Origin: a virus
Length of the DNA: 27,942 bases
Virus record (IMG/VR): IMGVR_UViG_3300025138_000261
Span: 1 to 27,942 of that record
Direction: 5' to 3' (one strand)
Shown here: in pieces, positions 1-19,394 of the stretch
Position numbering within the stretch: position 1 is the stretch's first letter
How the letters are laid out: every line of letters begins with the position of its first letter
Notes under the pieces: generated by a model
Told to the model about the DNA's origin: nothing
Database searches by the model: none
What the model saw: only the letters and a program-made list of their open reading frames with translations
Program-made: the position numbers and the translations under genes

Positions 1-87
1 TTTGACTGCGTCCTCGACTGGCCTGTCTTCGTACCAGTTCTTACGTGTTGCGGTGCAGTGAATGATGATTTCGTCGATGTGTCTCAT
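1..87 (-). CDS. N-acetylmuramoyl-L-alanine amidase (T7 lysozyme-like), N-terminal fragment
   Basis: Only the first 29 codons are in the window and the gene runs off the left edge. The visible N-terminus (MRHIDEIIIHCTATR...) is the first beta strand of the Amidase_2/PGRP fold, which cuts the amide bond between MurNAc and L-alanine in peptidoglycan. His10, in the IIIHCTAT context, is the expected first zinc ligand; the other ligands lie outside the window. The ATG at 85-87 is chosen because AAGGAG lies 7 bases upstream. An in-frame ATG at 195 would add 36 residues, but that stretch is better explained by an overlapping gene in another frame. It is the last gene seen in the lysis cluster, after two candidate holins, which fits an endolysin. 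In T7 the homologous enzyme also inhibits the phage RNA polymerase; nothing here tests that. Confidence 0.85.
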   Translation of the reverse strand, partial: MRHIDEIIIHCTATRKNWYEDRPVEDAVK

Positions 88-205
88 CGGCTTGCTCCTT
101 GATGAGTTTTTTTTGTCGCTCGATTTCATCGCGCTGTGTTTCAAGCTCGACAAATTGCCTGTCAATTTCTGTAAGTTGCGGGAAAGCCACGACATTATCG
201 GTCAC
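41..205 (-). CDS. Small coiled-coil protein overlapping the amidase start (54 aa)
   Basis: A 54-codon frame starts with GTG at 203-205, overlapping the TGA of the preceding membrane-protein gene (GTGA), and ends with TAA at 41-43, inside the amidase gene in another frame. The protein starts MTDNVVAFPQLTEIDRQF and continues as a charged heptad-like helix rich in E, R, K and Q. It has no transmembrane segment. It may be a small cytosolic or lysis-linked protein, perhaps helping couple translation to the amidase, but no family is recognised. A purine-rich AAAGGGAA lies immediately before the GTG, closer than an ideal ribosome binding site. The stop-start overlap and the ordered composition favour a real gene over a shadow. 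The roughly 47-base overlap with the amidase frame is the main doubt. Confidence 0.55.
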   Translation of the reverse strand: MTDNVVAFPQLTEIDRQFVELETQRDEIERQKKLIKEQADETHRRNHHSLHRNT

Positions 206-788: not shown

Positions 789-1045
789 TTTTCAAATCCT
801 TCCTTCAATCCATCCATGATTTCTTTCACAGTCGGTCGACGTTTGGCGTTCGGAGCGTACCGACACTGGAACTGCTTGGGACATTCTGTGTAGCTGACTG
901 ACGGGTAGTGATATGCCGTCGTACGGTTCGGCCCCAGATATATGCACACCATCTCGCCCGCAATTTTTGCGCGTCGTGCTAACTGGCACGTCACGTATTC
1001 TGGGTTGGCTAACCCAGCGACTAAGGCGGTTGAAAGAAGCCACAT
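785..1045 (-). CDS. Small secreted or membrane-anchored Cys-containing protein (86 aa)
   Basis: The N-terminus (MWLLSTALVAGLANPEYVTC) is hydrophobic and could be a short signal peptide or membrane anchor. Four cysteines (about 20, 34, 55 and 60) are spaced across the rest and could form two disulfides outside the cytoplasm. The C-terminal third is basic and ends in a helix. The ATG at 1043-1045 overlaps the TGA of the 4016-aa gene (ATGA), so it is coupled to it. The upstream G-rich tract encodes the Gly-rich tail of that protein and may double as a ribosome binding site. I do not recognise the family. Its place between the ejection block and the membrane/lysis genes would suit a spanin-like, superinfection-exclusion or other envelope role, but the sequence does not decide between them. 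Confidence 0.75.
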   Translation of the reverse strand: MWLLSTALVAGLANPEYVTCQLARRAKIAGEMVCIYLGPNRTTAYHYPSVSYTECPKQFQCRYAPNAKRRPTVKEIMDGLKEGFEK

Positions 1046-4000
1046 CAGCCAAAGCCACCCCCACCAAATCCGGTGCTGTTAAACTTACTGCTGCCAAATC
1101 CTTTGCTAGAGCCACTACCTTTCTTTCGTCCGGGTTTCTTAGCCTCGCCGCCGACTGCGTCGACGAAGGCTTCACGACCAGCAGGCCCACCATAGATACG
1201 TCCCGCAACGGGGATGCGCCCGTACACGTCACGTAAGGCTGTCCTAATCTTAGAGTTACTGTCTTCCCCACTGACCGCGTTGCTTACGGCTTGGCCTGTG
1301 CCTGCTGCCACGTTAAAGGCCAGTTCGGCTGTGCCTACCTGTGGCCCAAAGATGCCAGACATGGTGCGTACAAAGCCGTACTTGCCGTTGTCTAGCTGCG
1401 CCGACGTGTTGTATAGTAGCTCTCCGATCAGGCCCAAGCCACCAACCGCAAGCAGACCATCTATGTACCATCCGAGTGCAGCGTCTAGGTCATCGCCTTC
1501 TTTGACGCCCAGCACTTTAGCCAGACCCGCTTTGCTTTCTGTAAGAGAACGCTTGCGTGCTTCCGCTGAACGCTCATCTTCACCGCCACGCATCTGCACG
1601 TAGTCTTTCACACCTACGGCCACCATGCCTGCGCCTACGCCCGCTGTGAGCATGTAGAAAGCAGGGGCAGTGTTGCCCTGTTTAAACTCATCCATGATGT
1701 AACCTTGCAGCTTCATCATCAGCATAGGGAACGACTTGAGTTGGAACATCATACCGCCCCAAGGCGTCTGGCCCCACATCGGCAAGTCGTTTGGATTAGG
1801 TGTAAATATACTCTCGTTTGTAAATCGTATCATTGCCATCTGGACTTGCTGTTGGATAGCCTCGTCCTTTGGCAAAGTGTCAATCCTGAACGACCCCTCG
1901 CCTAGAAAGTCGTGGGTCGCGTTCTCACCAGTCAAACCATAGCGTTCGAGATACCTGACCGCAGTCTGATAACTCTTCGTATCAGTTTTGCCTTTTCGTT
2001 TAAGCCTCATCGCTCTGTCGATCTCAGACTTAAAGCTTTCAAACCCGACTAAGCTTGCGACTTCACGCATCGTGTTTGTCCAAGGGGTAAGCAACGTCGC
2101 GTTAAAGAAAGCGTTAGCAAACTTTTGGTTGCCTTCACCAGACATGTGAACCATGCGCTCGTGCATCAGGTTGTCGATCCCGACACCTATGTTTTTGGCG
2201 GCGGCTCGGTAGGACGGGTCAGTAGCATACTTAGCCCAAGTCTTTGCGAAAGCTCGCATGTTTCCACTGCGTATTAAGGGCAGAGAAACGTCTGGAATAG
2301 ATGTGAACATTGTAAAGCCAAGCAATGATACGCTTGTAAATGATTTAAGCGCACGACTAACTTTGTAGCGGGCCTCTTGACCAGTGCCGCCGTCGATTGG
2401 TTTTTTGTTGAGCACATCAAACATCTGCTTCATCTTAACAACAGTGTTGGGTGGTGGCTGGCCGCCTGCAAAGTCAATAGTCGCGTTGACTACTGCTTCA
2501 ACACGCTTTCTAAACTGCACATTGTTGTAAGCGTCTGGCCCAGCCGCTTCAATAATCATACTGATTGCAGCTTGTTTGTTGTTAATGTTTGTCTCAGGAT
2601 CGCCAAGCATCTGACGCAACCTGTTAGCCATGCCTCGTCGTTCGGTTTGTGTCAGGTTTAACCGAGGCACTACTAGATCATCGACCTCGCCCATTCCACT
2701 CTCAGTAGTTACCGCTGTCTTGGGTCTGTACTCAGTGCCAAGAATAGCCATAGCTGCGTCTATAGCGTTGGGAGACTGGGCTATATCAGCGTAAGCATTG
2801 AACGCATGGCCGTTCACACCAAACTGCTCAGTCAGCACGCGCTTACGGATCGTGCGGTCGTAGTATTTAGCCAAGATACCTTGCAAGTCTTGGACAAGAA
2901 ACTCATCCATAAACTCTAAGTCTCCGGGCTTTAGATTTAAAACACGAGATGCGAATGGATCGGACGAAGCCATCTGCAATTCGCCGTCGACTGTGTGGTC
3001 ATTGCCTCTGGTAATCTTGGAAGCAATCGCGGTAGCTGTTTCTCGCAACTCTCCCAATGTCGAACGTGTGTCATCAAAGTCTGGACTGTTTTGTTCACGA
3101 CGTAGAAATTCTACTAAGCTGTCGTGGAAACGCTTAGGATTAGCCAGCATAGCTTCAGTGTCCCAGACTTGCGGAACGTAGTAGTCGCTGCCTAGCTTGC
3201 GTGTGTCACCAACTCTCATGCCAAGTGCCTTCATTTTAGAAAGCTCATCGGCAAATGCTTCGCCAATGTCCAAAGCGACCTGACGCTCGGCTGGGTCTAG
3301 TAATTGCACCGCACCACGTCCACGTCGCAACGCTTGTATGATGCGCTTGTGGCTGGCTGGCTGGCCTACGTCGAGCGCACCCATAGCAAGCCCACGATTG
3401 CGTCTGTTCCAGCGTTGGAAGTTGTTGCCGCTGTCAGGTAACTCGTTCAGCTTGGCTATGATCGGCTGTAGCCTGCGAGCCAACATAGCGTCGTGCTTCT
3501 CAAAAGTACCAACACCGTTCACTGGCTTGATTAAATCGCCAAACCAGTTGGCACCAAGCTGCCGGAACAGGCTAGAGTTTTCGCGGAAGAAGTTTTTAAC
3601 TGTCGACCACTTGGAGATTTTTTCTACGTCGTGCTCTCCAATTCTATGCTGTTTAAATATTTTTTGCGTTACGTCGAGCACAGGCTTTGGCACACCCATC
3701 CGTCGAGCTTCGCGGGCAACGCCTACAAACGCAGGGTTCTCAAGTCTACCGTTCTGCACCATCATCTCTTCGACGACTTGACCTGTCAGCTTCATGTCAC
3801 CGCCAAAGGTTTCGCCCTCAAAGTTCAAAGCGTCTGTGCTTTTGAAGCTATCGGCTGCTTTGACCATCGTAGGATCAAACACAACTTCACCTTCGTCGGT
3901 GACTAGACCGTCGTAGTTCAAATCTTTTAAGAGCTTGTTGAATTTAAGTCGCGCATCGGCTCCGTTTCTGGCTGCGCCCGACTGGACTAACAGACCATTA

Positions 4001-7000
4001 GTGCCATTAGTAAATGCCGAGTACATATTCCGACCGGGCATTGGTTGAGCAAACATTGTCACTGCCGACTGTATACCCTCGGCGTCTAAGATTTTTCTGT
4101 CTGCCATCTCGACTAGAAGATTGCGAACTGTACCGTCACTGTCTTCGCTCAAAGAGTATGTCTGCTTGCTGCTTACGTTTAGTGGTGAGCGTATGCGTGC
4201 AAATACAGGAGAAACCTTTTGGTCTATCGCTATGCCGTTAGTTAAGTCTCGCACAGTGTCCCATGCCAACCGTTCTTTCTTTATTGTGTGAGACAGTAGC
4301 CGTTTTTGGTCAAACGAAAGACTGCTCATGTTAGATAAATCTCTAATACTTTCACGCTGTCTAATGATAGTTTGCATTAAGCCGTTTATCTCGTCGACTT
4401 TTTGAGCGTCTGTTATGCCAGCCATGCTCATGTCAGCTTGAGCTTTTTGATAGACTTGCTCTGCGCTGTAATCTGCGTCTACGTGTTTAGTCGATTTGAG
4501 ATACACCCCATCGCCGTAGTCGCCATTCGTTGTGGCAGTTACGCCTCGCACATTTTGATCTGAAGATACGTTAAAACGTAAGCGGTTTCTTAAATCAGCC
4601 TTCGGTGTCAGACCTACAAAATCTCTAACTGCGTTTTCTAGTCGAGCACTCATAGTCTTGAGCATTGAGTTCGCGTATTTGCCTGCAACGGCTGGGTGAA
4701 CTAACACCTCTCCTTGAGGTGTTGTCACCATGCCTTGTATCGCGTGCTTACCACGCTCGGCCATATCCAGATCAGCCGTAGCTATGCGGCGAACTTCCAT
4801 TTTACGCTCGGCTCTGCTTTTTGGCTGAAACAAAATGCCGTCTAATATTTGCGTGGCCTCATCGACCATTTGTTTCAAGGCGACGAATTGTTCTGGGCTT
4901 GATCCTTTAAGGCTGACCGTTCCATCGTTGTATAAGTCCTTAGTTGTCATGCGAGCAAAGCGATCTTTGAACGCGGCAACTCCCTCAAGTGGCATTTCAG
5001 AGATAGACTTTTGGACAAGCTTGTCTTGAAGCGCAAACGAAAAGTCATACAGCATTTCAAACAATGGCGTGCGGTGCTCTGTGACAGAAGCGTCGTACTC
5101 TTTTTCCATTTCTCTTTGCCCGCCCTCGGACAAAGCCTTGTAATTCTCACGCAAGTCGTTGATCTTGTCGATGTGGTTTGCCATCTCGCGTATTTTTTTG
5201 CGAGCACGGTCGTAAGCTGGGCCTTGGGGCGTAGCAATAGCGTCTTCGTCAAAGTCCATTGCTCTTGGGTCGCCGTTAATTGCAGCCAAGTCTAACTCGT
5301 TTACAGTTACGTCGGCTGGTATTTCGATGCTCTCGTCTTCGAGTAGCTTAATTTTTCTAATCATTTTTATGAATAGGTCGTGTGCAATTCCTTGCTGGGT
5401 TTTGTTTAGCCCTCTCACAGTTATCTCAGAAAACTGCGACACGGCAGGCGTAACTGGGTCAGTCGATATTGGCTCTGGCGTGTCTGGCGATGACGCCCCA
5501 TGCTTGCGACCGTAGTCGAGAATTGCCAAGTTGAAATCAGTAGGATCAGCTTCAGCCATAGCCATTAGCTTTGCTTTTTGGGCTTCGTCTGTTCCTCGTA
5601 ATATAGCTAGTATTGGGCTATCATCTCGCTCAAGCTTGGCAATAAATGACGCGCTGTCAGTCACAACATACGACACCCGTTTCTTTACTTCGTTGATCGA
5701 CGACGCCAAGCCGTTTAAGTTTTCTGCGTCTTCAGAAGCACTCGCGTTGTGAATAGCGTTTGCGTGTTCTTCCTCAGTCACAGCTTTTGCTGCACGAGTT
5801 TTTGCTTCATCCATGATTGCGTCTTCGCTTACTTTGCGCCAGTCGACGCCTCGGTTGGTAAGCTGTTGCACGATCTCGGAGACTGCGCGTGCGGTCTGTA
5901 GTTCTTCACGATTTTGTTTTGCGTTCTGCTGTCTAAACTTAGCACTCTTAGGAGATACCGTCTCGACGTATGATGCGCCTGTAAACTCGTCGATAGCTAT
6001 GTGCTTTCGCTGGGTGTGTGGCATCATGCGTTTGTATATACGTGTGTATTCACCAATGCCTCGTTGCATTGCGACTTGTAAGTCTGTCGACAAAGCGTGC
6101 AGGCGGTCTACGATTGCTTCGTCTAATCCTTCGTAAGCTGATTTGCTTTGTGTCAGCATCTTTTCGTACATGTCTTGTACGTCGCGCTGTGTATCCGTGG
6201 ACATCTCTGAAGCGATAGCGTTCTGCTGCGCTACGTCAGTTTGGTTTTTGCCAGATAAAGCGTCAGCAAATTTGTGGTCAGCTTCTTCAGCACGAAGTGC
6301 TTTTAGGAACCCGTGGATTTTGTACTGGGCCTGCATGATGTCTTCGAGAATTGTTTTGTCGTTAGCGTAGTCGAGAGCCATAATCCGGGTCGAGCCGCTG
6401 TCAGGTCTACCCGGAATTTTAGCGTGCTTTGGCTGGCCCTTTTTGCCGCCGTACTCTCCGTAAATAGACTTGGCTATTTTCTCCAACTCGACTGCAAGTG
6501 CAAAGCTATCACCCATACCTTTTGGGTTTGCCATCTTGGCTATTTGCAAGTCGCGTATGCGCTCGTCAAGTGCAACCATTTGCTTTGCTGCAAATTGCGC
6601 CATAGGCATTTCGCCTTGGCCCATCTGGCTTTGGCTTTCGATCCCATGTTCTTCGCCCATCTTTTCAAGGTGGCCGAACTTTGACACGCCTCTTTCTGGC
6701 GTTCCAGTCAGCGGGTCGATCTCTTCGTTTGGCAAATATTTTGAAAAAATTTCGGCTAAGTCAGGGTCGACTTTAAAAGTTTCACGACCGAGCATCCAAT
6801 TCATTATGGCGTGACCAAAACGACTAACCTTCTCGAAGACTTGCATCATTGGCGAGCCGGGTACTCGAAGTGCATCTGTCTGCAAGACGTAGCCTAAAAA
6901 CTGGTTGGCAAAAAATTCTTGGGGATTGCTTGCTGCATTTGGCACTAGCTCAGTGTCGACTAAACCTCGGCTCAATGCGTCAAAGTCTAGCTCGCCACCG

Positions 7001-10000
7001 CCGCGCATTGCATTGTCATCATAATATTTTTCCAGTGACGACCAGAACTTTTGCTTGTCACCTTCGTCGAGTAAGTTCTCGTAAATCCAATGGCCCATCT
7101 CGTGAACCAATTCCATAGACATAGGCGTTGGTCTTTGCGCTTTGTCAGAACCAACAACAATTTTAATTTCGTTAGTGTTTGGATCAAACGAAGCTTCGTC
7201 ACCTGTCGCCTTGGCAAGCAATGGTGCGCGTCCACCGTTGTACGCAGCCACACGCTCAAGGAAATCTACGGCTGTTTGCACCTCACGGTCAGGGTAGCCA
7301 TCAAACATAGAGCGCAACTTGTTAGCTGATACGCCCAGATTAGTTGACGGTTGCTTGATGCCGTTAGGTACGTTTGATTTAAGAACTCTGGAAGCTGCCG
7401 CACGAAGCGTTGCAAACCTCTTTAAACCTTTGAGGGACTTGATCTCACCTTGCCAGTCGACAGTTTCAATCCGATCAATAAAGTTGACAAGATCATCAAT
7501 AGTTCGCATTGGCTCGCCGTGACCTTGGAAAAACAATCGGTCTTGTTCAGAAAGAACTAAGTCTTTACTGCGTATTGTTTCAAAGTCGCTTGCTCTGTTC
7601 TCTCGTTTGCGTTGGCTCTGCACATTTTGAGTAACCCCACGCTTGCCCTTTTCTACGTCTAGGCCAGCCAGCTTGTTACCGTTCTGATCGACGAAGGTAT
7701 CCTCAACAGTCATGGGGAAAAAGGTTTCCCGATCTGTCGCACGGCTGCCACCAGTCTGCACATGCCCAATGACGTATGGTACGTCTGCGCTTTTACCTAA
7801 CAAATCGCCAATTACTTGAGGGTCGCCGTTTTTCTTTCTTCCGATCTTACGGACTTCACCTATCTTCGCTAAAGAACCTTTGTCTAAAAATTGGATAGCG
7901 AGACTACGGCCATCTGGCAGTTCTTCAAAGTCGTTAGTCGAATGTGTAAGCACATTGTTCGGGTCGCTTTTAGCGGGCGGGCTAATCTCTGGGGTGTCGC
8001 TGCCCTTTGGTGCTACAACAGTTTTCTCGTTTTTATACGTTTCTGTTTTCTTTAAATTAGTCTGAGTGTGAGGCAGACCTTTAGCGTTTTGGTTTACGGC
8101 AAAACGATTGCCGCCCGACTTAGCCTGCATGTCCTCAATTTTGTTTTTAAAGATTTGAGCCAACGACTTTTTTAAAGCGGTGCCAGACTTAAACTTTAGC
8201 TTCATCCCATCAGGGTGCATGATGGAAGCTACGCCGTTCTCATCTTCAGTGTATCGACCTAAAACCTGACCATCTAATTCAACGCGAATTGACTGGTCTG
8301 CCTTTGATCTAAAGTATTTTATGTCGTTGTTTAAGTCGACTTCAATACCTGAAGGAGTTGTAGCAATGATTGGTGTGTTTTTAACACCCAAAGGTTTGAC
8401 GTTTGGGGTGTCAGCCGAAGCCAGCGTTTGCACTTTAGCTTGTAAGTCGGCTACTGCCGCAATCAATTCTTCGCGGGACAGTGCGCCAGACTTAGCCTTT
8501 TCAGCCAAAGCGTTGTAGTCTGCCACGGCAGCTTTTTTGGATGTCGCTTGTTCGTTTATAGCGTCCACTTGTGTTTCGATCTGGGCTTTCTGATCAACAT
8601 TAGGCTCGCCATCAAAGTAAGCTGCGTACCCTAAGTCTGGGTCAGCTTCACCATCAGACGTAGCTCTGGACAAATGCTCTAAGTATGCAGCGTTGTTGAT
8701 AGTAGCTTCTTCATCTATTTCACCAAGACGTTCTTCGCCTGCTGCTACGCTGTTCTCATAGTCGAAATAACCAGCGGCCACCTCTTCTTCGTATTTCTTT
8801 TTGGCGTATGCTACTTTTCTCGCTTTAGTATATGCGAATTTGGCTAATCGTTTAGCGGCTTCAACATCTATCGGGGTGCCTTTGCCAAGGTGGTACTGAA
8901 CCAACTTGTTCTGTTGCTTTCGCATGGTAATTAAAAACTCTAACAAGTTGGTGTCTTCTTTGCTTAAAGACTTGCCGATAGCTTTTAGGTTGTTTTCTTG
9001 TTGCACGAGAGCGTGATGTCTGGCTGTAACTTCAATCGCAGTCTTTTTCAAAATAGTTCTGCCGAAGTCTTCTTTAGCGGCTGCGACTTTGTCGCCTAGC
9101 ATTTCTTGCTCAGTCGACGTTCGCAATTTTGATCGTTCGTTCTTGAGGCCACCTATTACAGTCTGGCTGTCTGAGTTCGTAATGAACGCAATGTTTGTTA
9201 CGTTTGTTCTTGCGTCATTCTCTGCTGCGAACAAAGCGTCCTCGACTTCAGGCAGTGTAAGCTTGGCCCCACCTTTTTCTAAACTAAAGGTTTTAGTTTT
9301 ATTTTTCTTTAAATTAGCAATCCCACTTTTTAACTTTTCAATAAGCGTGATGTGGTACTCTAGGACTTCTAGCCGCTGTTTGTTGCGAGCAGCCTTCTCG
9401 TCGTTTCGCACGACTTGTTGGGTGCCGCCTTTAATGCGGGCTTCGTAGCTTTCGTTCAGAGCGTTCTCTATCGCGTCTACGCGATGAGCTACGCCGTCTG
9501 AGCCACGCTTGTAACCTGAACGTATAAGTTTTCCTGTAAACCCTCTTGCGCCAACGGTTCGCAGAATAGATTGTATCTTGCCGTTTTCTTCATAGACGCC
9601 ACGGCCATCCCTGATTTGGCTGCGGCCCATAAAGTCGGCAAGGCCAGCGTCGGTTGTTACACTAACGTCAGTCGTTAGTCGCATACCTCTGGTGCGGATT
9701 TCTATCGTGCCGTTCTTCTTACGATTAAGGGTAGAAACCTCGTCTTCAGCACTGTTGATGAGGTCGCCCATGTTAAGCTGGCTGCCTTTTTTCAACACAA
9801 CATTTTTGCCGCTGGTTCTTTTGTATCTGTCTCGGACTTCTTTAAGTCTGGCTAGGTTCTCGTAGTGCGCGACGATCAGTTTTTTTTCCGCGTCAGTAGG
9901 TGCTTTGCCTTGATTTAAGTTGTACCGAAATGTCTCAAACTCTACAGGTCTACCGTCTTGGCCGATGACGGTCATCACCCCTTCCTCGCGTGTAAACTCA

Positions 10001-13000
10001 CTCTTAAAATTTGGGGGCAAACTAGAGTATGAGTTAAGATACTTTTGTCTTGCCGCTTTCATATCTTGGATGTGAGATTTGATCTCGCTAATCCGGCCAT
10101 TTAAGTAACCAATGTTGCGACTAACAAAGCTTTCATTGCCCGCCGCCATCTTATCAATGCGCTCGTAGTACATTTTCGACGCAATCTCGTTAGCCTTGCT
10201 GTCTGAATACCCTGCGTCTATTGCTTGTGCTCTAACTTTTTCCTTAAAAGTTATAAGTTCTTCGTTGAACGTATCGTCTAAAATACTTTCAAAATGTTTC
10301 ATGCGGCCATCTATGTTGGCAGCGTTCTCAGTCGCAAAGTTACCAGACGGCAGCGCGACTTCTGCGCCTTCGACTTTCATACCCCACGGCTTTTCGCCAG
10401 ACGGCGTACTCATTTTCCTTTCTGGCAATGGTTGTGTTTGAAGCGCAATCTCTTCCAGTCGGGCGACTAAACGATTGGCAAAATTTACGCCACCAAACTT
10501 TTGAGCAGCGTCAAAGAAACCAGTCGGGCCGTCGGCCACTTCTCCTGACTTCATTAGTTCTTCAATTTGGCTGTCTATAACTTTAGGGTTAGCTAAAGCA
10601 CGCTCTTGCGCTGCAATAGTTGCCGCCCTCATTTCAGGTGTAGCACCCTCAAGCATGGCTTCTAAAAAAGTCTTGCCTGTGTCACCCATTGGGTCTGTGT
10701 TCACAATGTTAATGTTCACTTCGCCGTCTACAGACAAGTCGTTTAAAATGTGAGCAAGCTGATGCTCACCCATTTTTTTGTAAAACAACTCGACGAACTT
10801 AGCTTTTTTCGCAGGCGTTCGACCGTCTATAGATTTGAACTCTGCTATGTCTTTTGCGTCTACGTCGATGTCTGTCAGGTATTGTTCTGCGGCTGCAACT
10901 GTTTTCCCATTGTCGTAAATTTTTTCAGGGTTAGCCGCGTCTGATCTTGCTTGAGCGGCAGCCGCGTCTGCTTCGGCTTGCTCGTTTGCCAAACGCAAGT
11001 CTTCGGCCAACCGCTCATTTGTTGCGCGTTCTTTAGCTGCGTTTCTGGACTGAACATACTCGGCAGTTTCAGTGTCAATCAGCTTATTGTTATCGACTTG
11101 AGAAACTTTTAGATCGGCTAGTTCTGTTTCTAACCCCCTGACCTTTTGCAGTAAGGCGTCTTTACCACCGACCCTAGCGTTCTTTAGCTTTTGTATAAGT
11201 TTAGCGGCAGTGTCTTCTGGTGCAAATGGGACTTGGGCTGCTTGCGCCGTACCCTCTAGTTTTGCTCTAAGCTCTGGCGTTACGTCGCCCTGCAAGCCTT
11301 CCTCTAAAATCTTTACGATCTCAGTGTCAAACTTGTCGTTTGTTTCCTTGTCCAAGTCTGGCGTGCCGTCATATTCTTCTTGGGCTACACGCAGTTCTTC
11401 TTGCTTTGCAACAACGTCGTCTTCAAATTTTTTCTTGCGACTGTCAGTTATCTCAAGTCGGTCTTTAAAGTCTTGGTCGGCATCGCTTAAATCTGTACGA
11501 CCTTCTTCTTGCGGCCCCATTCTAACGTCTGGGCCTTCGTCGGGCGCAGTGCCGCCCTTAGTGTCAACGTCGATCCGATTAAGTCGCACGTCGCCTGCCG
11601 GGTTTAGCCCGTCGTCACCTTGTCTGAAACGGTTTGCGTTTTTCTGCTGCGCTGTAGTCTCTGCGCCTGTCAAGTTGCGAACCGTGCCATCGCCTGTTGG
11701 TGTCGCTGGGCCATCGGTTATGCCGCGACCCAAGTTATTCTCAAGCAAGCCTTGTGATAGCAGATCGCTTTGGTCTGTGATTTGCAAAAGTTCTTCGAGG
11801 TCTTCAGGCTGTGTGATTTCTTCACTGACAAACTTTTGCAGTTTAAGCTTGATGCGACTAACCTCGTTTCTCATTTGCCTAGAGGTTCGAGCCAACGCGC
11901 TTTGCTTGTCGATGTTGCTTTCTGCCGAAGCTTTCCCTGCAAGCTCATCAGCCATGCGATTAAGATTGACCATTTGGTCTGCCGCTAAGTCGAGCACGTC
12001 CTCTTCGGACAACGCGCTTGCGTTAATCGTTTCTGATGTCGCAGGGCCGTCGCCCCCCATAGCGGAACTAGCTCCATCTTCCATCATCTCAGGAGACAAT
12101 GCGCCTGTGTGCCTAGTGCCTGTAGTTCTTGCGACCACTTGCGCTTGCAAGTCTGCAAGCTCTTGTATTTGCGCCTGCGCTGGTGTTAAGGTTTCTTCTT
12201 CTTCAATCTGCCGCACACCTGACTTTGTGCTTGCGTCAACGTCGGCCCTCGCTTGGTCGACTACTGCTTTTCGGCCCGCCTCAATGCCTCTTGTTGTCTG
12301 ACTTTTCAACCCAGCAAACGGGTTTGCTATTTTTGCTGCTGCGCCACCTAACGCGCCACCCATTACACCGCCTATGGTCGCGCCAGCACCCACCGCCATC
12401 GCGCCCTGTGCCACGCTGTAGCCGTCCTGTAGGCCCAACTCTGTGTTCCGCGCCTGTATGCCTGCGTCAAGCACGCCCTCTGCCAAGCCTGATGCTCCGG
12501 CTTCGTATAACGCACCTTTGTAAACGCCCGCTTTAAGGGCTGCGCGTGACGCTTCTTTTTTCAGAGAGTTGCCTATTAAGCCTTTTGCGCTGCCGTGGAT
12601 AATGGCCTGCTTTGCCGCTTCACGAGCGGCGATACCACCCGAACCAAAACCGACTAAGTTAATGGGGTCGGCTAATGTGGCAAGTGCGTTTGTTGCAAAG
12701 CCCCGCCATCCGTCGCCGCCTTCTTGATAAAAGTCTGGCAGTGCGTCGAAGGTGGTTTGCAACCGTGCCAAGCGCGTAGATTGTTCGTCGCTTTGAGAGT
12801 TAGCGTCGTACAGGTCGCGGCCAATAGAGACTAGGTTCATGTTGCGCCAGCGGCGGTCTTCCATAAAGTAGTCTTTGGCTTCGTCTACGCTGCCGAACGT
12901 CTTGCCGTCACGCTCATAGTAATAGTCGAAAAGGTCTTGAACAAAGTCTTGCCTAGCAAAAACATTCTTAGCGTTTTGCTTGCTCAAATTATTAGCGTAA

Positions 13001-13095
13001 CCTAAACCGTTAGTTTCTTGGCCTTGCTGAGAAATATTATCGGCAGGGCCAACCGCCCGCATACTTGCAAAATGGTCGTTAAGTGCGTTACCCAC
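1045..13095 (-). CDS. Giant polyvalent ejection (internal virion) protein with zincin protease and ART-like regions (4016 aa)
   Basis: This 12-kb gene occupies the position of T7 gp16, after gp14- and gp15-like genes. It starts with GTG at 13093-13095; TGGAG lies 7 bases upstream. Regions seen: an N-terminal helical part with Gly/Ala-rich hydrophobic stretches (1-270); a low-complexity linker (270-540); long charged coiled coils (540-740); further helical segments to about 1600; a beta-rich patch near 1576-1635; a zincin motif (H1998, E1999, H2002 in VHEMGHW) with likely third ligand E2060 in NPQEFFAN; an ADP-ribosyltransferase-like region (2830-3090); and a C-terminal domain with hydrophobic stretches near 3585, 3808-3830 and 3872-3895, ending in a Gly/Ser/Phe tail. 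No transglycosylase motif or clear RNA polymerase motif was noticed. Packaging in the virion and delivery into the cell are inferred from position and from similar marine phage proteins. The protease could mature the ejection proteins or cut host targets. Confidence 0.88.
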   Translation of the reverse strand: MGNALNDHFASMRAVGPADNISQQGQETNGLGYANNLSKQNAKNVFARQDFVQDLFDYYYERDGKTFGSVDEAKDYFMEDRRWRNMNLVSIGRDLYDANSQSDEQSTRLARLQTTFDALPDFYQEGGDGWRGFATNALATLADPINLVGFGSGGIAAREAAKQAIIHGSAKGLIGNSLKKEASRAALKAGVYKGALYEAGASGLAEGVLDAGIQARNTELGLQDGYSVAQGAMAVGAGATIGGVMGGALGGAAAKIANPFAGLKSQTTRGIEAGRKAVVDQARADVDASTKSGVRQIEEEETLTPAQAQIQELADLQAQVVARTTGTRHTGALSPEMMEDGASSAMGGDGPATSETINASALSEEDVLDLAADQMVNLNRMADELAGKASAESNIDKQSALARTSRQMRNEVSRIKLKLQKFVSEEITQPEDLEELLQITDQSDLLSQGLLENNLGRGITDGPATPTGDGTVRNLTGAETTAQQKNANRFRQGDDGLNPAGDVRLNRIDVDTKGGTAPDEGPDVRMGPQEEGRTDLSDADQDFKDRLEITDSRKKKFEDDVVAKQEELRVAQEEYDGTPDLDKETNDKFDTEIVKILEEGLQGDVTPELRAKLEGTAQAAQVPFAPEDTAAKLIQKLKNARVGGKDALLQKVRGLETELADLKVSQVDNNKLIDTETAEYVQSRNAAKERATNERLAEDLRLANEQAEADAAAAQARSDAANPEKIYDNGKTVAAAEQYLTDIDVDAKDIAEFKSIDGRTPAKKAKFVELFYKKMGEHQLAHILNDLSVDGEVNINIVNTDPMGDTGKTFLEAMLEGATPEMRAATIAAQERALANPKVIDSQIEELMKSGEVADGPTGFFDAAQKFGGVNFANRLVARLEEIALQTQPLPERKMSTPSGEKPWGMKVEGAEVALPSGNFATENAANIDGRMKHFESILDDTFNEELITFKEKVRAQAIDAGYSDSKANEIASKMYYERIDKMAAGNESFVSRNIGYLNGRISEIKSHIQDMKAARQKYLNSYSSLPPNFKSEFTREEGVMTVIGQDGRPVEFETFRYNLNQGKAPTDAEKKLIVAHYENLARLKEVRDRYKRTSGKNVVLKKGSQLNMGDLINSAEDEVSTLNRKKNGTIEIRTRGMRLTTDVSVTTDAGLADFMGRSQIRDGRGVYEENGKIQSILRTVGARGFTGKLIRSGYKRGSDGVAHRVDAIENALNESYEARIKGGTQQVVRNDEKAARNKQRLEVLEYHITLIEKLKSGIANLKKNKTKTFSLEKGGAKLTLPEVEDALFAAENDARTNVTNIAFITNSDSQTVIGGLKNERSKLRTSTEQEMLGDKVAAAKEDFGRTILKKTAIEVTARHHALVQQENNLKAIGKSLSKEDTNLLEFLITMRKQQNKLVQYHLGKGTPIDVEAAKRLAKFAYTKARKVAYAKKKYEEEVAAGYFDYENSVAAGEERLGEIDEEATINNAAYLEHLSRATSDGEADPDLGYAAYFDGEPNVDQKAQIETQVDAINEQATSKKAAVADYNALAEKAKSGALSREELIAAVADLQAKVQTLASADTPNVKPLGVKNTPIIATTPSGIEVDLNNDIKYFRSKADQSIRVELDGQVLGRYTEDENGVASIMHPDGMKLKFKSGTALKKSLAQIFKNKIEDMQAKSGGNRFAVNQNAKGLPHTQTNLKKTETYKNEKTVVAPKGSDTPEISPPAKSDPNNVLTHSTNDFEELPDGRSLAIQFLDKGSLAKIGEVRKIGRKKNGDPQVIGDLLGKSADVPYVIGHVQTGGSRATDRETFFPMTVEDTFVDQNGNKLAGLDVEKGKRGVTQNVQSQRKRENRASDFETIRSKDLVLSEQDRLFFQGHGEPMRTIDDLVNFIDRIETVDWQGEIKSLKGLKRFATLRAAASRVLKSNVPNGIKQPSTNLGVSANKLRSMFDGYPDREVQTAVDFLERVAAYNGGRAPLLAKATGDEASFDPNTNEIKIVVGSDKAQRPTPMSMELVHEMGHWIYENLLDEGDKQKFWSSLEKYYDDNAMRGGGELDFDALSRGLVDTELVPNAASNPQEFFANQFLGYVLQTDALRVPGSPMMQVFEKVSRFGHAIMNWMLGRETFKVDPDLAEIFSKYLPNEEIDPLTGTPERGVSKFGHLEKMGEEHGIESQSQMGQGEMPMAQFAAKQMVALDERIRDLQIAKMANPKGMGDSFALAVELEKIAKSIYGEYGGKKGQPKHAKIPGRPDSGSTRIMALDYANDKTILEDIMQAQYKIHGFLKALRAEEADHKFADALSGKNQTDVAQQNAIASEMSTDTQRDVQDMYEKMLTQSKSAYEGLDEAIVDRLHALSTDLQVAMQRGIGEYTRIYKRMMPHTQRKHIAIDEFTGASYVETVSPKSAKFRQQNAKQNREELQTARAVSEIVQQLTNRGVDWRKVSEDAIMDEAKTRAAKAVTEEEHANAIHNASASEDAENLNGLASSINEVKKRVSYVVTDSASFIAKLERDDSPILAILRGTDEAQKAKLMAMAEADPTDFNLAILDYGRKHGASSPDTPEPISTDPVTPAVSQFSEITVRGLNKTQQGIAHDLFIKMIRKIKLLEDESIEIPADVTVNELDLAAINGDPRAMDFDEDAIATPQGPAYDRARKKIREMANHIDKINDLRENYKALSEGGQREMEKEYDASVTEHRTPLFEMLYDFSFALQDKLVQKSISEMPLEGVAAFKDRFARMTTKDLYNDGTVSLKGSSPEQFVALKQMVDEATQILDGILFQPKSRAERKMEVRRIATADLDMAERGKHAIQGMVTTPQGEVLVHPAVAGKYANSMLKTMSARLENAVRDFVGLTPKADLRNRLRFNVSSDQNVRGVTATTNGDYGDGVYLKSTKHVDADYSAEQVYQKAQADMSMAGITDAQKVDEINGLMQTIIRQRESIRDLSNMSSLSFDQKRLLSHTIKKERLAWDTVRDLTNGIAIDQKVSPVFARIRSPLNVSSKQTYSLSEDSDGTVRNLLVEMADRKILDAEGIQSAVTMFAQPMPGRNMYSAFTNGTNGLLVQSGAARNGADARLKFNKLLKDLNYDGLVTDEGEVVFDPTMVKAADSFKSTDALNFEGETFGGDMKLTGQVVEEMMVQNGRLENPAFVGVAREARRMGVPKPVLDVTQKIFKQHRIGEHDVEKISKWSTVKNFFRENSSLFRQLGANWFGDLIKPVNGVGTFEKHDAMLARRLQPIIAKLNELPDSGNNFQRWNRRNRGLAMGALDVGQPASHKRIIQALRRGRGAVQLLDPAERQVALDIGEAFADELSKMKALGMRVGDTRKLGSDYYVPQVWDTEAMLANPKRFHDSLVEFLRREQNSPDFDDTRSTLGELRETATAIASKITRGNDHTVDGELQMASSDPFASRVLNLKPGDLEFMDEFLVQDLQGILAKYYDRTIRKRVLTEQFGVNGHAFNAYADIAQSPNAIDAAMAILGTEYRPKTAVTTESGMGEVDDLVVPRLNLTQTERRGMANRLRQMLGDPETNINNKQAAISMIIEAAGPDAYNNVQFRKRVEAVVNATIDFAGGQPPPNTVVKMKQMFDVLNKKPIDGGTGQEARYKVSRALKSFTSVSLLGFTMFTSIPDVSLPLIRSGNMRAFAKTWAKYATDPSYRAAAKNIGVGIDNLMHERMVHMSGEGNQKFANAFFNATLLTPWTNTMREVASLVGFESFKSEIDRAMRLKRKGKTDTKSYQTAVRYLERYGLTGENATHDFLGEGSFRIDTLPKDEAIQQQVQMAMIRFTNESIFTPNPNDLPMWGQTPWGGMMFQLKSFPMLMMKLQGYIMDEFKQGNTAPAFYMLTAGVGAGMVAVGVKDYVQMRGGEDERSAEARKRSLTESKAGLAKVLGVKEGDDLDAALGWYIDGLLAVGGLGLIGELLYNTSAQLDNGKYGFVRTMSGIFGPQVGTAELAFNVAAGTGQAVSNAVSGEDSNSKIRTALRDVYGRIPVAGRIYGGPAGREAFVDAVGGEAKKPGRKKGSGSSKGFGSSKFNSTGFGGGGFG

Positions 13096-13098
13096 GTC

Positions 13099-13138
13099 GG
13101 TACTCCAGTTTCCGTCGTTATGTTGGAAACATCATACC
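13099..13138 (-). promoter_or_regulatory. Hairpin enclosing the ribosome binding site of the giant gene
   Basis: On the minus strand GTTTCC (13125-13130) pairs with GGAAAC (13108-13113), and the flanking GGTA (13135-13138) pairs with TACC (13099-13102). The internal loop between the two arms holds the GGAG ribosome binding site (13103-13106) of the GTG-started 4016-aa gene. A fold like this could lower initiation of that very long protein. The rest of the 77-base gap (13096-13172) shows no gene. A TATGAT at 13131-13136 resembles a -10 box but has no convincing -35 partner. Confidence 0.4.
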
Positions 13139-13172: not shown

Positions 13173-16037
13173 TTAGAACTGTTCGTTTAAGTCCGTCTCT
13201 TGCCCAAAGCCAGAATATATTTCTTCTATTGCATTTTCAGCATCTACACTTCTTTGGTTTGCGCCTAATCCTATATTTCCTCTAGGTAATTGTTCTTGGC
13301 TTGCAGCTATGCTTGCAAACCAAGCAAGAGGGTCAGCTAACATTGCTTCTCTTGCTTTCATTGCCTTCTTATGGTGTGGGTTGTGAAGAAGGCGACCGTC
13401 CCTCATATTCAATAAATAATTACGAACGTCCTTGTTCGCTAACATATAGTCTAACATATCCATTTGACGTTTGTTTCTCGCTAAAGCAAAACGACTATAA
13501 GCTCTATTTATTTCTTCAGCTACGGATTTGTTTGCGCCTGTTAAATCGACTTGAATTTTTCGTAAAGGCACAGGCTCTCCGAATGGGTTTTCACCATATT
13601 CTGCTATGGCTAATTCTGCGGCTGTCGCTTTCCCGGCTGCCTGTGTCCCATCTGGGTCGTCTGCGTGATTGCTTGCTACGTCGACTTTAAATCCTTTCGG
13701 GTCATTTTCGTCGATCACATACTTAACGCCCACTTGAAACCCAGCTTTTCTAGCAGTATCGGCGTTGGGTTCGTTCACTTGGTACGTTTCAGTATTTGGG
13801 ATGTGTCGCAAAAACGAAGGCATACCTTGAGGCACAGCTTTTTTGTATAGGTCTATCTTTTTATTTAGACGGCTTTTTAACTCAGACATAGCCGCAGTCG
13901 CACTTGACCCATCGTCTAAAATTTCGGCCAACTCTGGGGCTTCTAGTTCTGTTCTTAAAACTTTGTCTCGCAGAAGTTCTAAATCTTTGATGTGGCTTTG
14001 GAGCTTCTCTCGTCTTTCTGTAACTACAGATTGAGCCGTATCACGCGGTAAAGAAATTAACCTGTCATAGTGTGGGTCGCTGATTTGAAAAGATAAATCA
14101 AGAACACCTTTCCCCCAATTTAAAACAGTAGTCCCAGGTTCGACTAAGCCATCCATACCAGCGTTTATGTAGTTATTCGTGTACGTCGTTATGCCAGTTT
14201 GTAAAGGCAGCAACCCTTGAGCTTGTGCCACCTCTCTAATAATTCTCTGAAACTCGGAAAAATTTTCAGCGTTGCCTTGGTCATAATCCCCGTCTTCTGG
14301 AAGCGCAGTCGTGACCGCATTAAACACCTCTTCCACTCTTTCCGGTGGTATAAAATACTGACTGACCATTTGCGATAAAGCTCGGTAGTCTTGTCGTCCT
14401 TCTGGTTCTTCGCCCAGACCCCCTGCCCAATCGGCAAGTAGATTACGAGCTTTTTCTTGCGTTTCTTTGACTATAGTTTGCGCGGTTGCTGTTAAACCTT
14501 TTGATTTTTCTCGGTAAATGTCTGACTGTCTCAAACCAATTTTTCTCTGAAGGTGTGTCCAAATTGGCTGCCACTCTTTGTCGTTATAGTCTTTAAGGGC
14601 AACCCGCCCGTATTTTGCACGGATGCGGTTTACTTCAGCAAAGAGTTTTTGTTTTCTGTTCTGGTCTTTTTCTTCATTTATTAGTCGTTCTATAACGCTT
14701 GGTCGTGGATCGCCCGGCGTAGACGCAGGATCAACCGCGCCCATGATCTCGTTCATCATAGGCGTTTCATCAGCCGCAAACTCAATGTCGTTTGCAATGT
14801 TTAACTTAGCCAGCAAATGCGATTTGATTTGAGCGTGAAGCGTAAGATAAGCTGGGGTGAACTGGCCGTTCTTCTTCCATCTGGTTCCGTTTAAATCTAT
14901 CCGGCTGCCACCTATGTATTGGTCTACAAGCTCATTTATATCGCCGTCGTCAGTCGACATATTTTCAGCCACGTCCATTCGCAGATCACTGATTGTGCCT
15001 TTGATTTCAGTTATAGCTGCGTCTTCGATTGTTGTAAGGCTTAGTGTTGCATTGGCTAATAAGTCGTTTCTAAGTCGAGTTCTAAAGTTTTCAGCTTCAA
15101 CAGACGTATCGGTTTCATTGAAAATCTCCGATGCGTATTTGTTGACCAGTCTGTTTATCTCGTCAGGATTGTTAGCATACGCGGCGGGTACTGTCTCCCC
15201 TTGCGCTTTGCCGATAACCGCTTCCATTTGACGATTGCGAAGTTGCGAGAAATCTGTAGCTGCGCTTAGTCTAATTCGATCTTCAAATGTACTAGACATC
15301 TCAACTTCTGAAGGCAAAAATCGTTTAATATAATTAACTGCTGCATCGGCTGCGTCTGAAGTGTTATCTATGTCAGCCATGACTGTCGTAAGGTTTGCAA
15401 TAAGTGCGCTTTCTGCTAATCCTTCTGCTTCATTCACGTATCGCTGGCGGTTGCCTTCTAGAAAAGACTTAACGCCTGCTTGAAAATGCGCGGGGGCTGC
15501 TCCGATTGCAGTCTCTATACCAGCATTAGTCTTGTACTGCTGAAGATTAAAAGTGGTGATGTATTTTCCCAAGGCTTCTGTGTTTAACATGCCGAGATAA
15601 TTCTTAGCCTGTTCCTCACCATAAATTTCTCTCAGATCAGGCAACGACCCTTTGTCTTTGTTTGCTGCCCACCAAACGTCGTCAGTAACATCTACGCCTA
15701 TGTAGCCGTCCAAAGTGGCTTTAAGATTATCAAGTCTTGTTCTTTGATTTGCTAGTCTAGTCGTTGCAAACTTAGCGTCTTTGTCGGCTTGGATTGCGCC
15801 TAGTCGCGCAGACGTTTCCTCAATGACGTTCGACGAAGGTAACTGCTTGCCGTAATAAAAATCACCGCCTGCAAGGTTGCGCTTCATCGTCTCTAAGTCT
15901 TGCACGGACGCATCCACGCCTAGCTCGGCTTGGGTCTTCACATAACTATTGAACGCCGCCATGTTGTCACTGCGACGTTTCTGTATGCGATCTTCTTTGT
16001 TATCGCGTGCTTTGAGAAATGCTGAACCAATACGCAT
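13173..16037 (-). CDS. Large helical internal virion protein, T7 gp15-like by position (954 aa)
   Basis: This long, mostly helical, charged protein has no transmembrane segment and no signal peptide. Its N-terminus is basic (KARDNKEDRIQKRRSDN) and helical repeats fill the rest. No catalytic motif is seen. It lies between a 307-aa gp14-sized protein and the giant protein, matching the gp14-gp15-gp16 order of the T7 core, whose members form the internal core and then the trans-envelope ejection channel. At 954 aa it is somewhat longer than T7 gp15 (about 750 aa). Its ATG overlaps the TAA of the preceding gene (TAATG at 16035-16039), which indicates translational coupling. A G-rich run about 11 bases upstream is a weak ribosome binding site. 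The assignment rests on position, size and composition, not on a recognised domain. Confidence 0.8.
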   Translation of the reverse strand: MRIGSAFLKARDNKEDRIQKRRSDNMAAFNSYVKTQAELGVDASVQDLETMKRNLAGGDFYYGKQLPSSNVIEETSARLGAIQADKDAKFATTRLANQRTRLDNLKATLDGYIGVDVTDDVWWAANKDKGSLPDLREIYGEEQAKNYLGMLNTEALGKYITTFNLQQYKTNAGIETAIGAAPAHFQAGVKSFLEGNRQRYVNEAEGLAESALIANLTTVMADIDNTSDAADAAVNYIKRFLPSEVEMSSTFEDRIRLSAATDFSQLRNRQMEAVIGKAQGETVPAAYANNPDEINRLVNKYASEIFNETDTSVEAENFRTRLRNDLLANATLSLTTIEDAAITEIKGTISDLRMDVAENMSTDDGDINELVDQYIGGSRIDLNGTRWKKNGQFTPAYLTLHAQIKSHLLAKLNIANDIEFAADETPMMNEIMGAVDPASTPGDPRPSVIERLINEEKDQNRKQKLFAEVNRIRAKYGRVALKDYNDKEWQPIWTHLQRKIGLRQSDIYREKSKGLTATAQTIVKETQEKARNLLADWAGGLGEEPEGRQDYRALSQMVSQYFIPPERVEEVFNAVTTALPEDGDYDQGNAENFSEFQRIIREVAQAQGLLPLQTGITTYTNNYINAGMDGLVEPGTTVLNWGKGVLDLSFQISDPHYDRLISLPRDTAQSVVTERREKLQSHIKDLELLRDKVLRTELEAPELAEILDDGSSATAAMSELKSRLNKKIDLYKKAVPQGMPSFLRHIPNTETYQVNEPNADTARKAGFQVGVKYVIDENDPKGFKVDVASNHADDPDGTQAAGKATAAELAIAEYGENPFGEPVPLRKIQVDLTGANKSVAEEINRAYSRFALARNKRQMDMLDYMLANKDVRNYLLNMRDGRLLHNPHHKKAMKAREAMLADPLAWFASIAASQEQLPRGNIGLGANQRSVDAENAIEEIYSGFGQETDLNEQF

Positions 16038-16960
16038 TATGAATTAACCCCCGCCGCCTCTCTCAAGGCTTCAACATTTTCGCCTGCATATTTTTCCAAA
16101 GAGGCCAAGTATCTTGCGTCTGCGCCCGATCCTGTGTCTGTCGGGCCAGCCGCTCTATTGCCAAATCCATAGCCAATGTCAGGCGCGATCTTCTCGTTGA
16201 ATGAAGCCATCGTGTCACCAAATACCGACTGGCTATCAGCGTAGTTTGTGGCGGCATTGTTAGCGAAGTTTGTAAAAGTCGACGACGCATTAGTCATTTG
16301 GCTTGGCGCGTTGTTTGTAACAAACTGGCCTTCCAGCTCGGCTGCTTTACCAAGGACGCCAGTTATTTCGTTGAAGGTTCCTTGTCGCCCACTGTTGATT
16401 GCATCAGAAAAAGACTTGCTGCGATTGATTGCTGCATCAAATGCTGCTTGGTCTATGTTAGCCAACTGATCCGTCGACTTAGCAATAAGCTGTGCTTGCT
16501 CGTCGGTAAACTGGGTCGACCTGTCCATGCCTCGACGCATGGCAGACGCCTTGCCTTGAGACGACACGCGCTCGACTGTGTTGTAGTAGTCGTCCATTAA
16601 CTGACCGCGAAACGTCTGATAATTTGCTGCGATGTCTGCGCCGTCCACCTGTGATCTCGGCCCAAGTTTTGCCATCGAAGACTTCAGTGCGTTGTCCATG
16701 TCGGAAATGCGCGCCAAAATACGGTCACGGTATGCGGCTTCGTCGGCGGCTGACTGCGCTGCCATTGAAAGTTGCTGTTCGGCAATGCTTCGCTGCAATG
16801 CCGATATTTCTTCCATCGCTGCTTGGTCTTGCTTGCTCTGCCTAAACGAATAACCCATGTCGAAGATTGAGCCATAGGCTTGTGCTTGAAAAGCGTCTCT
16901 GCCTTGTGGGTCTTCATAGTAGCTGCTGGCTACTCTGCCTAATGTTTCGCCAAATGCCAT
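16037..16960 (-). CDS. Internal virion protein, T7 gp14-like by position (307 aa)
   Basis: The protein is rich in Ala, Gln, Ser and Asp, and helical over most of its length: a Gln-rich segment (about 45-75) is followed by a long helix with QVDGADIAANYQTFRGQLMDDYYN. The C-terminal third is Asn/Ser/Thr-rich and flexible. TAGGAG sits 7 bases upstream of the ATG at 16960. Its stop overlaps the start of the 954-aa gene. In T7-like phages a protein of about 200 aa at this position (gp14) is ejected first and forms the outer-membrane part of the DNA channel. Homology to gp14 cannot be shown by eye; the call rests on gene order and on an N-terminus (MAFGETLGRVASSYYEDPQG) of the kind seen in related marine phage proteins. 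Confidence 0.75.
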   Translation of the reverse strand: MAFGETLGRVASSYYEDPQGRDAFQAQAYGSIFDMGYSFRQSKQDQAAMEEISALQRSIAEQQLSMAAQSAADEAAYRDRILARISDMDNALKSSMAKLGPRSQVDGADIAANYQTFRGQLMDDYYNTVERVSSQGKASAMRRGMDRSTQFTDEQAQLIAKSTDQLANIDQAAFDAAINRSKSFSDAINSGRQGTFNEITGVLGKAAELEGQFVTNNAPSQMTNASSTFTNFANNAATNYADSQSVFGDTMASFNEKIAPDIGYGFGNRAAGPTDTGSGADARYLASLEKYAGENVEALREAAGVNS

Positions 16961-18932: not shown

Positions 18933-19385
18933 TTATAAATCCTTCTGGAAAATGTAGCCTGTTTGGACATAGCCGTTTCTTTTGGCAAACTTGTCCCAAC
19001 GCTCGTCTACACCGTTGTTACACGGCATGAACAACATGACTTTTGCTTCCATGTATCGCGCCCAGTGCTCAAATTTATCCATAAATCGGGAAGCAACTTC
19101 AGCACCACGATGCAATGGATGAATATACATACATTGCTCTATCGCCAGTTTTGTCGTGCCGAAGTAATGAAACGACAGACTGGCTAAAAACCAACCAATT
19201 ATCTCGTCATCTTTAGTTGCTACGAGAGCCAGCCTGTCATCGTCTGTGACGTATTGGGAAAGCATGATAACAACTTTTTCTTCATCATAATCAAACTTGC
19301 TGAACAAACCTTCAGCGTGCATCATCTTTCCCATTTCAGCTAACTGTTTTATCTCTTCATACTTGACCAATCTAATTTTTATCAT
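18933..19385 (-). CDS. GNAT-family N-acetyltransferase (150 aa)
   Basis: Size and strand order fit the Gcn5-related N-acetyltransferase fold, which moves an acetyl group from acetyl-CoA to an amine. The N-terminal strand is MIKIRLVKYEE. Central strands include RLALVATKDDEIIGWFLA (about 51-68). Motif A reads QCMYIHPLHRGAEVASRF (84-101), where the RGAEVA loop (93-98) would hold the pyrophosphate of acetyl-CoA; the second Gly of the usual RGxGxG is replaced. The C-terminus has the typical FAKRNGYVQTGYIF strand turn. The substrate is unknown. The ATG at 19383-19385 is favoured, although no ribosome binding site is clear and a GTG three codons upstream, right after the preceding stop, is possible. 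An enzyme inside a virion block is unusual and may modify a virion or host protein. Confidence 0.88.
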   Translation of the reverse strand: MIKIRLVKYEEIKQLAEMGKMMHAEGLFSKFDYDEEKVVIMLSQYVTDDDRLALVATKDDEIIGWFLASLSFHYFGTTKLAIEQCMYIHPLHRGAEVASRFMDKFEHWARYMEAKVMLFMPCNNGVDERWDKFAKRNGYVQTGYIFQKDL

Positions 19386-19394
19386 TGATTGCAC

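What the first reader, a model, noticed from the sequence alone, without database searches (positions are those of the whole stretch)
1045..13095. 4016-aa ejection-position protein with a zincin protease in place of a lytic transglycosylase
The last protein of the T7-like core block is about three times the length of T7 gp16. It carries HEMGH (1998-2002) and a spaced NPQEFFAN (E2060), the layout of a gluzincin-type metalloprotease, and I noticed no transglycosylase signature. A virion-borne protease delivered into the cell could cleave ejection proteins to let them thread through the portal, or attack host defences. Such giant multi-domain virion proteins in marine phages are poorly described experimentally.
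Basis: partly seen in the sequence, partly recalled or inferred. Interest (0 to 1): 0.7.

Follow-up and report, generated by a model that had tools for sequence, protein, structure and literature searches.

The report
Giant phage ejection protein carrying protease
A marine bacterial virus encodes a giant 4,016-residue protein, in the place where its injection proteins normally lie, with a strictly conserved zinc-protease site shared by dozens of related uncultured marine viruses; it fits a known class of multi-enzyme injected proteins but belongs to an undescribed family.

Summary
The 4,016-aa ORF (1045-13095, minus strand) is real. HEMGH (1998-2002) and E2060 are not chance: in relatives fetched only by their C-terminal domain, His, Glu, His and Trp are identical in 50/50 and the later Glu in 53/53, while the residue before it varies. 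The AlphaFold model of 1780-2170 best matches gluzincins: lethal factor's catalytic region, Pro-Pro endopeptidases, ArdC, IrrE.

It is a gp16-position ejection protein: the N-terminus matches pelagiphage 'internal virion protein D', the C-terminus virion structural families. Roseophage CRP-810 has the orthologue, annotated as three ORFs. Between zincin and C-terminus lies an ADP-ribosyltransferase-like domain, recognised by Pfam in relatives, with a changed first motif here. Many relatives carry a second HExxH.

'In place of a lytic transglycosylase' fails as a swap: the zincin sits mid-protein, and pelagiphage gp16-like proteins also lack that domain. The absence itself holds (0 of 31 related records over cut-off).

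Best reading: a polyvalent ejection protein (Iyer 2017), without recognisable RNA polymerase, whose protease probably acts after ejection, on host proteins or on itself. Packaging, activity and targets are inferred.

The parts
1045..13095 (-). giant ORF, 4016 aa, gp16-position ejection protein
   Evidence: full-length relatives of 4052 and 4002 aa; orthologue in CRP-810
13103..13106 (-). GGAG, ribosome-binding-site-like, seven bases before the GTG start
   Evidence: sequence
12322..13038 (-). residues 20-258: N-terminal module matching pelagiphage internal virion protein D, with Gly-rich hydrophobic stretches at 137-157 and 233-253
   Evidence: tblastn E down to 4e-19, blastp 32% E 6e-28 with HTVC109P, hydropathy
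7996..11898 (-). residues ~400-1700: poorly conserved middle, low occupancy in relatives
   Evidence: per-100-residue conservation 0.14-0.31
6721..7503 (-). residues 1865-2125: gluzincin-like metallopeptidase domain
7090..7104 (-). HEMGH, residues 1998-2002
   Evidence: invariant H, E, H in all covering relatives
6904..6927 (-). NPQEFFAN, residues 2057-2064; E2060 is the predicted third zinc ligand
   Evidence: E 44/44 and 53/53
3841..4593 (-). residues 2835-3085: ADP-ribosyltransferase-like domain, first motif changed (FNVS for YHGT)
   Evidence: ART-PolyVal in 30 of 51 relatives; motif table; fold match to cyanophage A4 pre-ejectosome chain
1066..3591 (-). residues 3169-4010: helical C-terminal virion module
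   Evidence: 36% identity with CRP-810 gp34; phrog_684 E 8e-15
13173..16037 (-). 954-aa protein in gp15-like position
   Evidence: gene order; no family hit
16037..16960 (-). 307-aa protein in gp14-like position
   Evidence: gene order; no family hit
1..195 (-). start of an amidase-type endolysin gene, cut by the window edge
   Evidence: translation; Amidase_2 E 1e-16 in L008, a contig identical over the end of the giant gene

Best explanation
A giant polyvalent ejection protein. It is made late, packaged in the head as the gp16-position core protein, and ejected with the DNA. Its N-terminal and C-terminal modules do the envelope-crossing work of gp16. The middle carries enzyme cargo: a gluzincin peptidase, catalytically competent by all sequence signs, and an ADP-ribosyltransferase-like domain that looks altered in this phage. 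The peptidase most likely works after ejection in the new host, on host proteins or by cutting its own chain to free domains. Shown here: the gene, the invariant active site, a gluzincin-like fold in the model, ART-like relatives, kinship with ejection proteins. Inferred: packaging, ejection, zinc binding, activity, timing, substrate.
For: Active-site residues invariant in an unselected set, the general-base Glu included. Fold matches dominated by gluzincins, with a weak Pfam ATLF hit on the window's own domain, E 0.045, and DUF6782 putative metallopeptidase E 1.6e-5 in a relative. N-terminus and C-terminus match internal or structural virion proteins, phrog_342 (internal virion protein with endolysin domain) in relative L045. 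Protein under purifying selection, dN/dS about 0.11-0.14 over the full length although dS is near saturation, and 0.09-0.19 for the zincin in closer pairs. ART-PolyVal domain in 30 of 51 relatives. Precedent: zincins in ejected polyvalent proteins and in N4 virion RNAP (PMC5512222, PMC12633501).
Against: No proteomics or biochemistry. Foldseek E-values are only 0.02 or worse and Z is under 8. No coordinates were available to measure His-His-Glu geometry. The ART first motif is lost here. Cis action and host-directed action cannot be told apart by sequence.
Confidence: 0.7

Rival explanations
1. Pre-ejection maturation: the zincin cuts the giant chain, and perhaps other core proteins, inside the head, so that the N-terminal module, enzyme block and C-terminal module are packaged or ejected as separate chains.
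For: P1 DdrB is processed before packaging and has a C-terminal zincin (PMC5512222). CRP-810 and contig L043 have the protein as three ORFs.
Against: The ORF splits look like frame breaks: an exact 31-bp tandem duplication at one CRP-810 junction, and a single ORF in L032 that is 97% identical to L043. N4's zincin-bearing protein is packaged unprocessed (PMC5512222), and the recombinant full-length protein showed no degradation (PMC12633501).
Confidence: 0.15
2. The zincin is a cell-wall peptidase that replaces the transglycosylase, opening peptidoglycan for the ejectosome.
For: No SLT over cut-off in 31 related records and no M23 in 15, so the ejection apparatus has no recognised wall enzyme.
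Against: Fold matches are protein- and peptide-cutting gluzincins. Position is mid-protein, not the N-terminus. Loss of the hydrolase without replacement is known in P22-like phages (PMC8954989).
Confidence: 0.07
3. The zincin is a structural relic with no peptidase activity.
For: The neighbouring ART-like domain has lost a motif in this subgroup, so relics occur in this protein.
Against: The general base E1999 and all three predicted ligands are invariant at 20-30% identity; a relic would be expected to lose them somewhere.
Confidence: 0.05
4. The protein is not in the virion at all but is a late-expressed cytoplasmic enzyme.
For: No virion proteomics for the family was found in the sources read.
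Against: Both ends match internal or structural virion proteins, and the gene block order matches that of CRP-810 and pelagiphages.
Confidence: 0.03

Closest known systems
Roseobacter phage CRP-810 gp36+gp35+gp34 (OR671924; PMC11288001)
   Same: Orthologue along the length: N-terminus 33%, zincin 28%, ART region 24%, C-terminus 36% identity; same motifs HExxH and PQEFFANQF
   Different: Annotated as three ORFs, has a second HExxH and a Pfam-recognisable ART; the paper reports no protease
Polyvalent proteins with zincin-like MPTase and ART domains (Iyer et al. 2017, PMC5512222)
   Same: Multi-domain, late-gene neighbourhood, zincin with HExxH plus a Glu on the next helix, ART domain
   Different: This family is absent from Pfam and PHROGs as a zincin; sits in the T7 gp16 position with gp16-like ends
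Phage N4 virion RNA polymerase gp50 (Schitoviridae)
   Same: Giant ejection protein (3500 aa) with an HExxH domain before a helical C-terminal region (PMC12633501); the homologous zincin of Pectobacterium phage CB1 also resembles PPEP-2 (PMC8472413)
   Different: N4 has an RNAP domain; no significant profile similarity to our alignments
T7 gp16 and pelagiphage internal virion protein D
   Same: Gene position; N-terminal module shared with the pelagiphage proteins; one relative matches phrog_342 over its C-terminus
   Different: Three times longer; no transglycosylase; carries zincin and ART-like domains
Cyanophage A4 pre-ejectosome chain (PDB 9k3a_B)
   Same: Best Foldseek match of the ART-like model; VIA Z 8.1, rmsd 5.2, 174 aligned; A-4L ORF27, presumably this chain, has YHGT and GSGTYF in that range
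   Different: No HExxH in ORF27 and no significant sequence similarity

Membership tests
Gluzincin metallopeptidase | HExxH with two His ligands and a general-base Glu, conserved | tested here: met
   44/44 and 50/50
Gluzincin metallopeptidase | Downstream Glu as third ligand, on the following helix | tested here: met
   E2060 44/44 and 53/53; at the start of helix 279-293 of the model
Gluzincin metallopeptidase | Zincin fold | tested here: inconclusive
   Top fold matches are gluzincins, Z up to 7.5, Foldseek E 0.02 at best: supportive, but below the level the tool calls decisive
Gluzincin metallopeptidase | Bound zinc and peptidase activity | not testable with these tools
   needs protein
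Lethal factor / Pro-Pro endopeptidase (M34-type) family | Significant sequence membership (Pfam ATLF over its cut-off) | tested here: not met
   ATLF 13.9 bits against a cut-off of 27.4, E 0.045: resembles in fold, not filed as a member
Polyvalent protein (Iyer 2017) | Two or more disparate enzymatic domains in one polypeptide | tested here: met
   Zincin plus ART-PolyVal in relatives; in the window protein the ART-like part is degenerate
Polyvalent protein (Iyer 2017) | Encoded among late virion genes | tested here: met
Polyvalent protein (Iyer 2017) | Packaged and injected | not testable with these tools
   needs virion proteomics
N4-type virion RNA polymerase | Single-subunit RNAP domain in the middle | tested here: inconclusive
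   No RNAP family among the hits of 14 members, but no positive control on N4 gp50 was run
T7 gp16 family | N-terminal lytic transglycosylase | tested here: not met
   No SLT in P0001 or the record
T7 gp16 family | gp16-like C-terminal region | tested here: inconclusive
   phrog_342 (internal virion protein with endolysin domain) matched by relative L045, E 1.7e-11, but not by the window protein, which matches phrog_684
ART-PolyVal | Pfam PF18760 match and H-Y-D type motifs | tested here: not met
   Relatives match; the window protein does not, and has FNVS for YHGT while keeping the Tyr and Asp motifs

The most novel reading that the evidence does not exclude
A widespread, undescribed family of RNAP-less giant ejection proteins in marine podoviruses delivers an active gluzincin (in many members with a second HExxH site) plus an ADP-ribosyltransferase into the cell in the first moments of infection, to cleave and modify host proteins such as defence or transcription factors.
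Probability: 0.35. Interest if true: 0.75.

Novelty: new variant of a known kind. Interest (0 to 1): 0.47.

Why it matters
Virion-carried enzymes act before any phage gene is expressed, so they are natural anti-defence or take-over tools, yet the papers read here offer only proposals for what the zincin cargo of ejection proteins does. Here the active site is invariant in every relative examined, the family is common in marine virus data (330 C-terminal relatives in one scan), and a cultured representative (CRP-810) exists. That makes the open question of what such zincins cut directly testable.

Tried and rejected
Whole-protein Pfam, PHROG and PDB-sequence searches gave nothing significant. 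The sub-threshold SLT match at ~1908-1960 was rejected as chance. Direct profile comparison with N4 gp50 was not significant; the only local hhalign match pairs the two HExxH segments. The three-ORF split of CRP-810 as evidence of natural processing was rejected: one junction is an exact 31-bp tandem duplication, and L043 is likewise split while a 97%-identical contig is not. The genome-collection scan found three MAG contigs, no useful host signal. PDB sequence search of the C-terminal 1297 residues gave nothing. PHROG search of N-terminal pieces gave nothing. The A4 pre-ejectosome paper is not held. Searches failed through wrong frames.

Full report
OBSERVATION. The window is a 27,942-base IMG/VR virus record. 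The ORF at 1045-13095 on the minus strand encodes 4016 aa from a GTG start with GGAG seven bases upstream. It ends a block ordered capsid, tail-tube-like genes, fibre, core genes (the major head protein and a GNAT acetyltransferase are recognised by PHROGs). Contig L008 overlaps the end of the gene at 100% identity and continues into an Amidase_2 gene, so lysis genes follow. HEMGH at 1998-2002 and NPQEFFAN with E2060 are as stated. Shuffling gives a HExxH somewhere in 3.75% of proteins of this composition, so the motif alone proves little.

RELATIVES. Scans of viral contigs gave two other full-length proteins (4052 and 4002 aa) and fragments. The only annotated phage matching over most of the length is Roseobacter phage CRP-810, whose discoverers describe a new phage family with 251 related uncultured genomes (PMC11288001). 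A profile scan on the zincin region gave 56 loci; one on the C-terminal region found 330 relatives, of which the tool kept 80. Uninterrupted complete ORFs in the family run from about 2,870 to 4,070 aa. The published size range for gp16-like proteins is 609-1337 aa (PMC8954989).

ACTIVE SITE. The zincin-based scan used the motifs themselves, so conservation seen there is partly selected. The C-terminal scan is free of this. All 40 of its loci that reach at least 6.6 kb upstream carry the zincin region with HExxH. In the aligned set, His, Glu, His and Trp are identical in 50 of 50, and the later Glu in 53 of 53. The residue before that Glu is Q, A, S, G or D, and the one after it F, Y, L or M. 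Some contigs are near-duplicates, so the counts overstate independence. Because the general-base Glu is not a zinc ligand in this class (established knowledge of zincins), its invariance argues for catalysis and not only for metal binding.

FOLD. AlphaFold2 on residues 1780-2170 with 44 natural relatives gave mean pLDDT 75.8, near or above 90 through most of the core; HExxH lies in one helix and E2060 at the start of a following long one. Foldseek's top rows are lethal factor, PPEP-2 and IrrE, E 0.02 to 0.2. VIA-align gives Z 7.5 (rmsd 3.6, 147 aligned) to the lethal factor catalytic region, about 6-6.7 to Pro-Pro endopeptidases, 5.7 to ArdC and 5.4 to IrrE. Z under 8 is not decisive alone, but the rows shown are almost all zincins and the aligned range covers the motif residues.

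OTHER DOMAINS. Residues 2723-3094 align to the CRP-810 region that Pfam calls ART-PolyVal, below its cut-off; 30 of 51 relatives match that family, best E 3.3e-11. In the window's subgroup YHGT is replaced by FNVS-like sequence while the Tyr and Asp motifs remain, so ART activity here is doubtful. The ART-like model's best Foldseek hit is a chain of the cyanophage A4 pre-ejectosome (E 0.0047; VIA Z 8.1). The A-4L protein presumed, from residue numbering, to be that chain carries YHGT and GSGTYF in the matched range but shows no sequence similarity to the profile. Seventeen distinct loci have a second HExxH about 600-715 residues after the first; the window protein does not. The N-terminal ~250 residues match internal virion protein D of pelagiphages, and the C-terminal third matches virion structural PHROGs.

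TRANSGLYCOSYLASE. PF01464 is over cut-off in none of 31 related records, including the complete CRP-810 genome; one sub-threshold match lies in a separate 177-aa ORF behind the giant gene of L055. M23 is found in none of 15. The absence is real, but 'in place of' is not: the zincin is not where the T7 domain sits, the pelagiphage homologue also lacks that domain, and P22-like phages lack it in gp16 (PMC8954989).

MECHANISM. The literature already offers the frame: polyvalent proteins ejected with DNA, about 36% of them with zincin-like peptidases, suggested to act by self-processing, after entry, or on host proteins (PMC5512222). N4's giant virion RNAP has the order N-terminal module, enzyme, HExxH domain, helical C-terminus (PMC12633501). 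I place most weight on action after ejection, for two reasons: the comparable N4 protein is packaged unprocessed (PMC5512222), and ART-type cargo found beside the zincin acts on proteins of the host in known cases. Self-cleavage after entry is close behind. Packaging, ejection, activity and substrate are all inferred.

NOVELTY. The kind is known; this family is not described in the sources searched. It differs from N4-type giants in lacking a recognisable RNAP (no positive control was run) and from T7 gp16 in carrying a peptidase and ART-like block and in size. I rate it a new variant of a known kind.

Noticed in passing
L010 (OR671924.1) 10062-10121 and 16066-16112: The CRP-810 orthologue is annotated as three ORFs; the gp35/gp34 junction is an exact 31-bp tandem duplication, so at least one break looks like an assembly artefact or a recent mutation.
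   Followed up: partly
L043 6541-16397: Same protein split into three overlapping ORFs, although contig L032, 97% identical at DNA level, has one uninterrupted 3276-codon frame.
   Followed up: partly
L022, L036, L040, L059 and other loci: A second HExxH about 600-715 residues after the first; in CRP-810 it is followed by EEWFAESLAEYMAERV, which looks like a second zincin. The window protein lacks it.
   Followed up: partly
window 18933-19394 (-): GNAT acetyltransferase between fibre and core genes (phrog_1249 E 1e-20); CRP-810 has one (gp40) in the same block.
   Followed up: no
window 20727-22559 (-): Fibre-like protein with two similar stretches of the form [14 protein letters not shown] / [14 protein letters not shown].
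   Followed up: no
L090 25321-28497 (Anabaena phage A-4L ORF28): Annotated 'peptidase'; by eye it contains an M23-like motif (YHLHWEV) and a transglycosylase-like stretch, so that phage seems to keep its wall enzymes on a different core protein.
   Followed up: no
P0007 (CRP-810 gp36) 99-376: Weak match to the N-terminal part of the N4-type virion RNA polymerase family phrog_2206 (E 5.8e-5), a possible link between the N-terminal modules.
   Followed up: no
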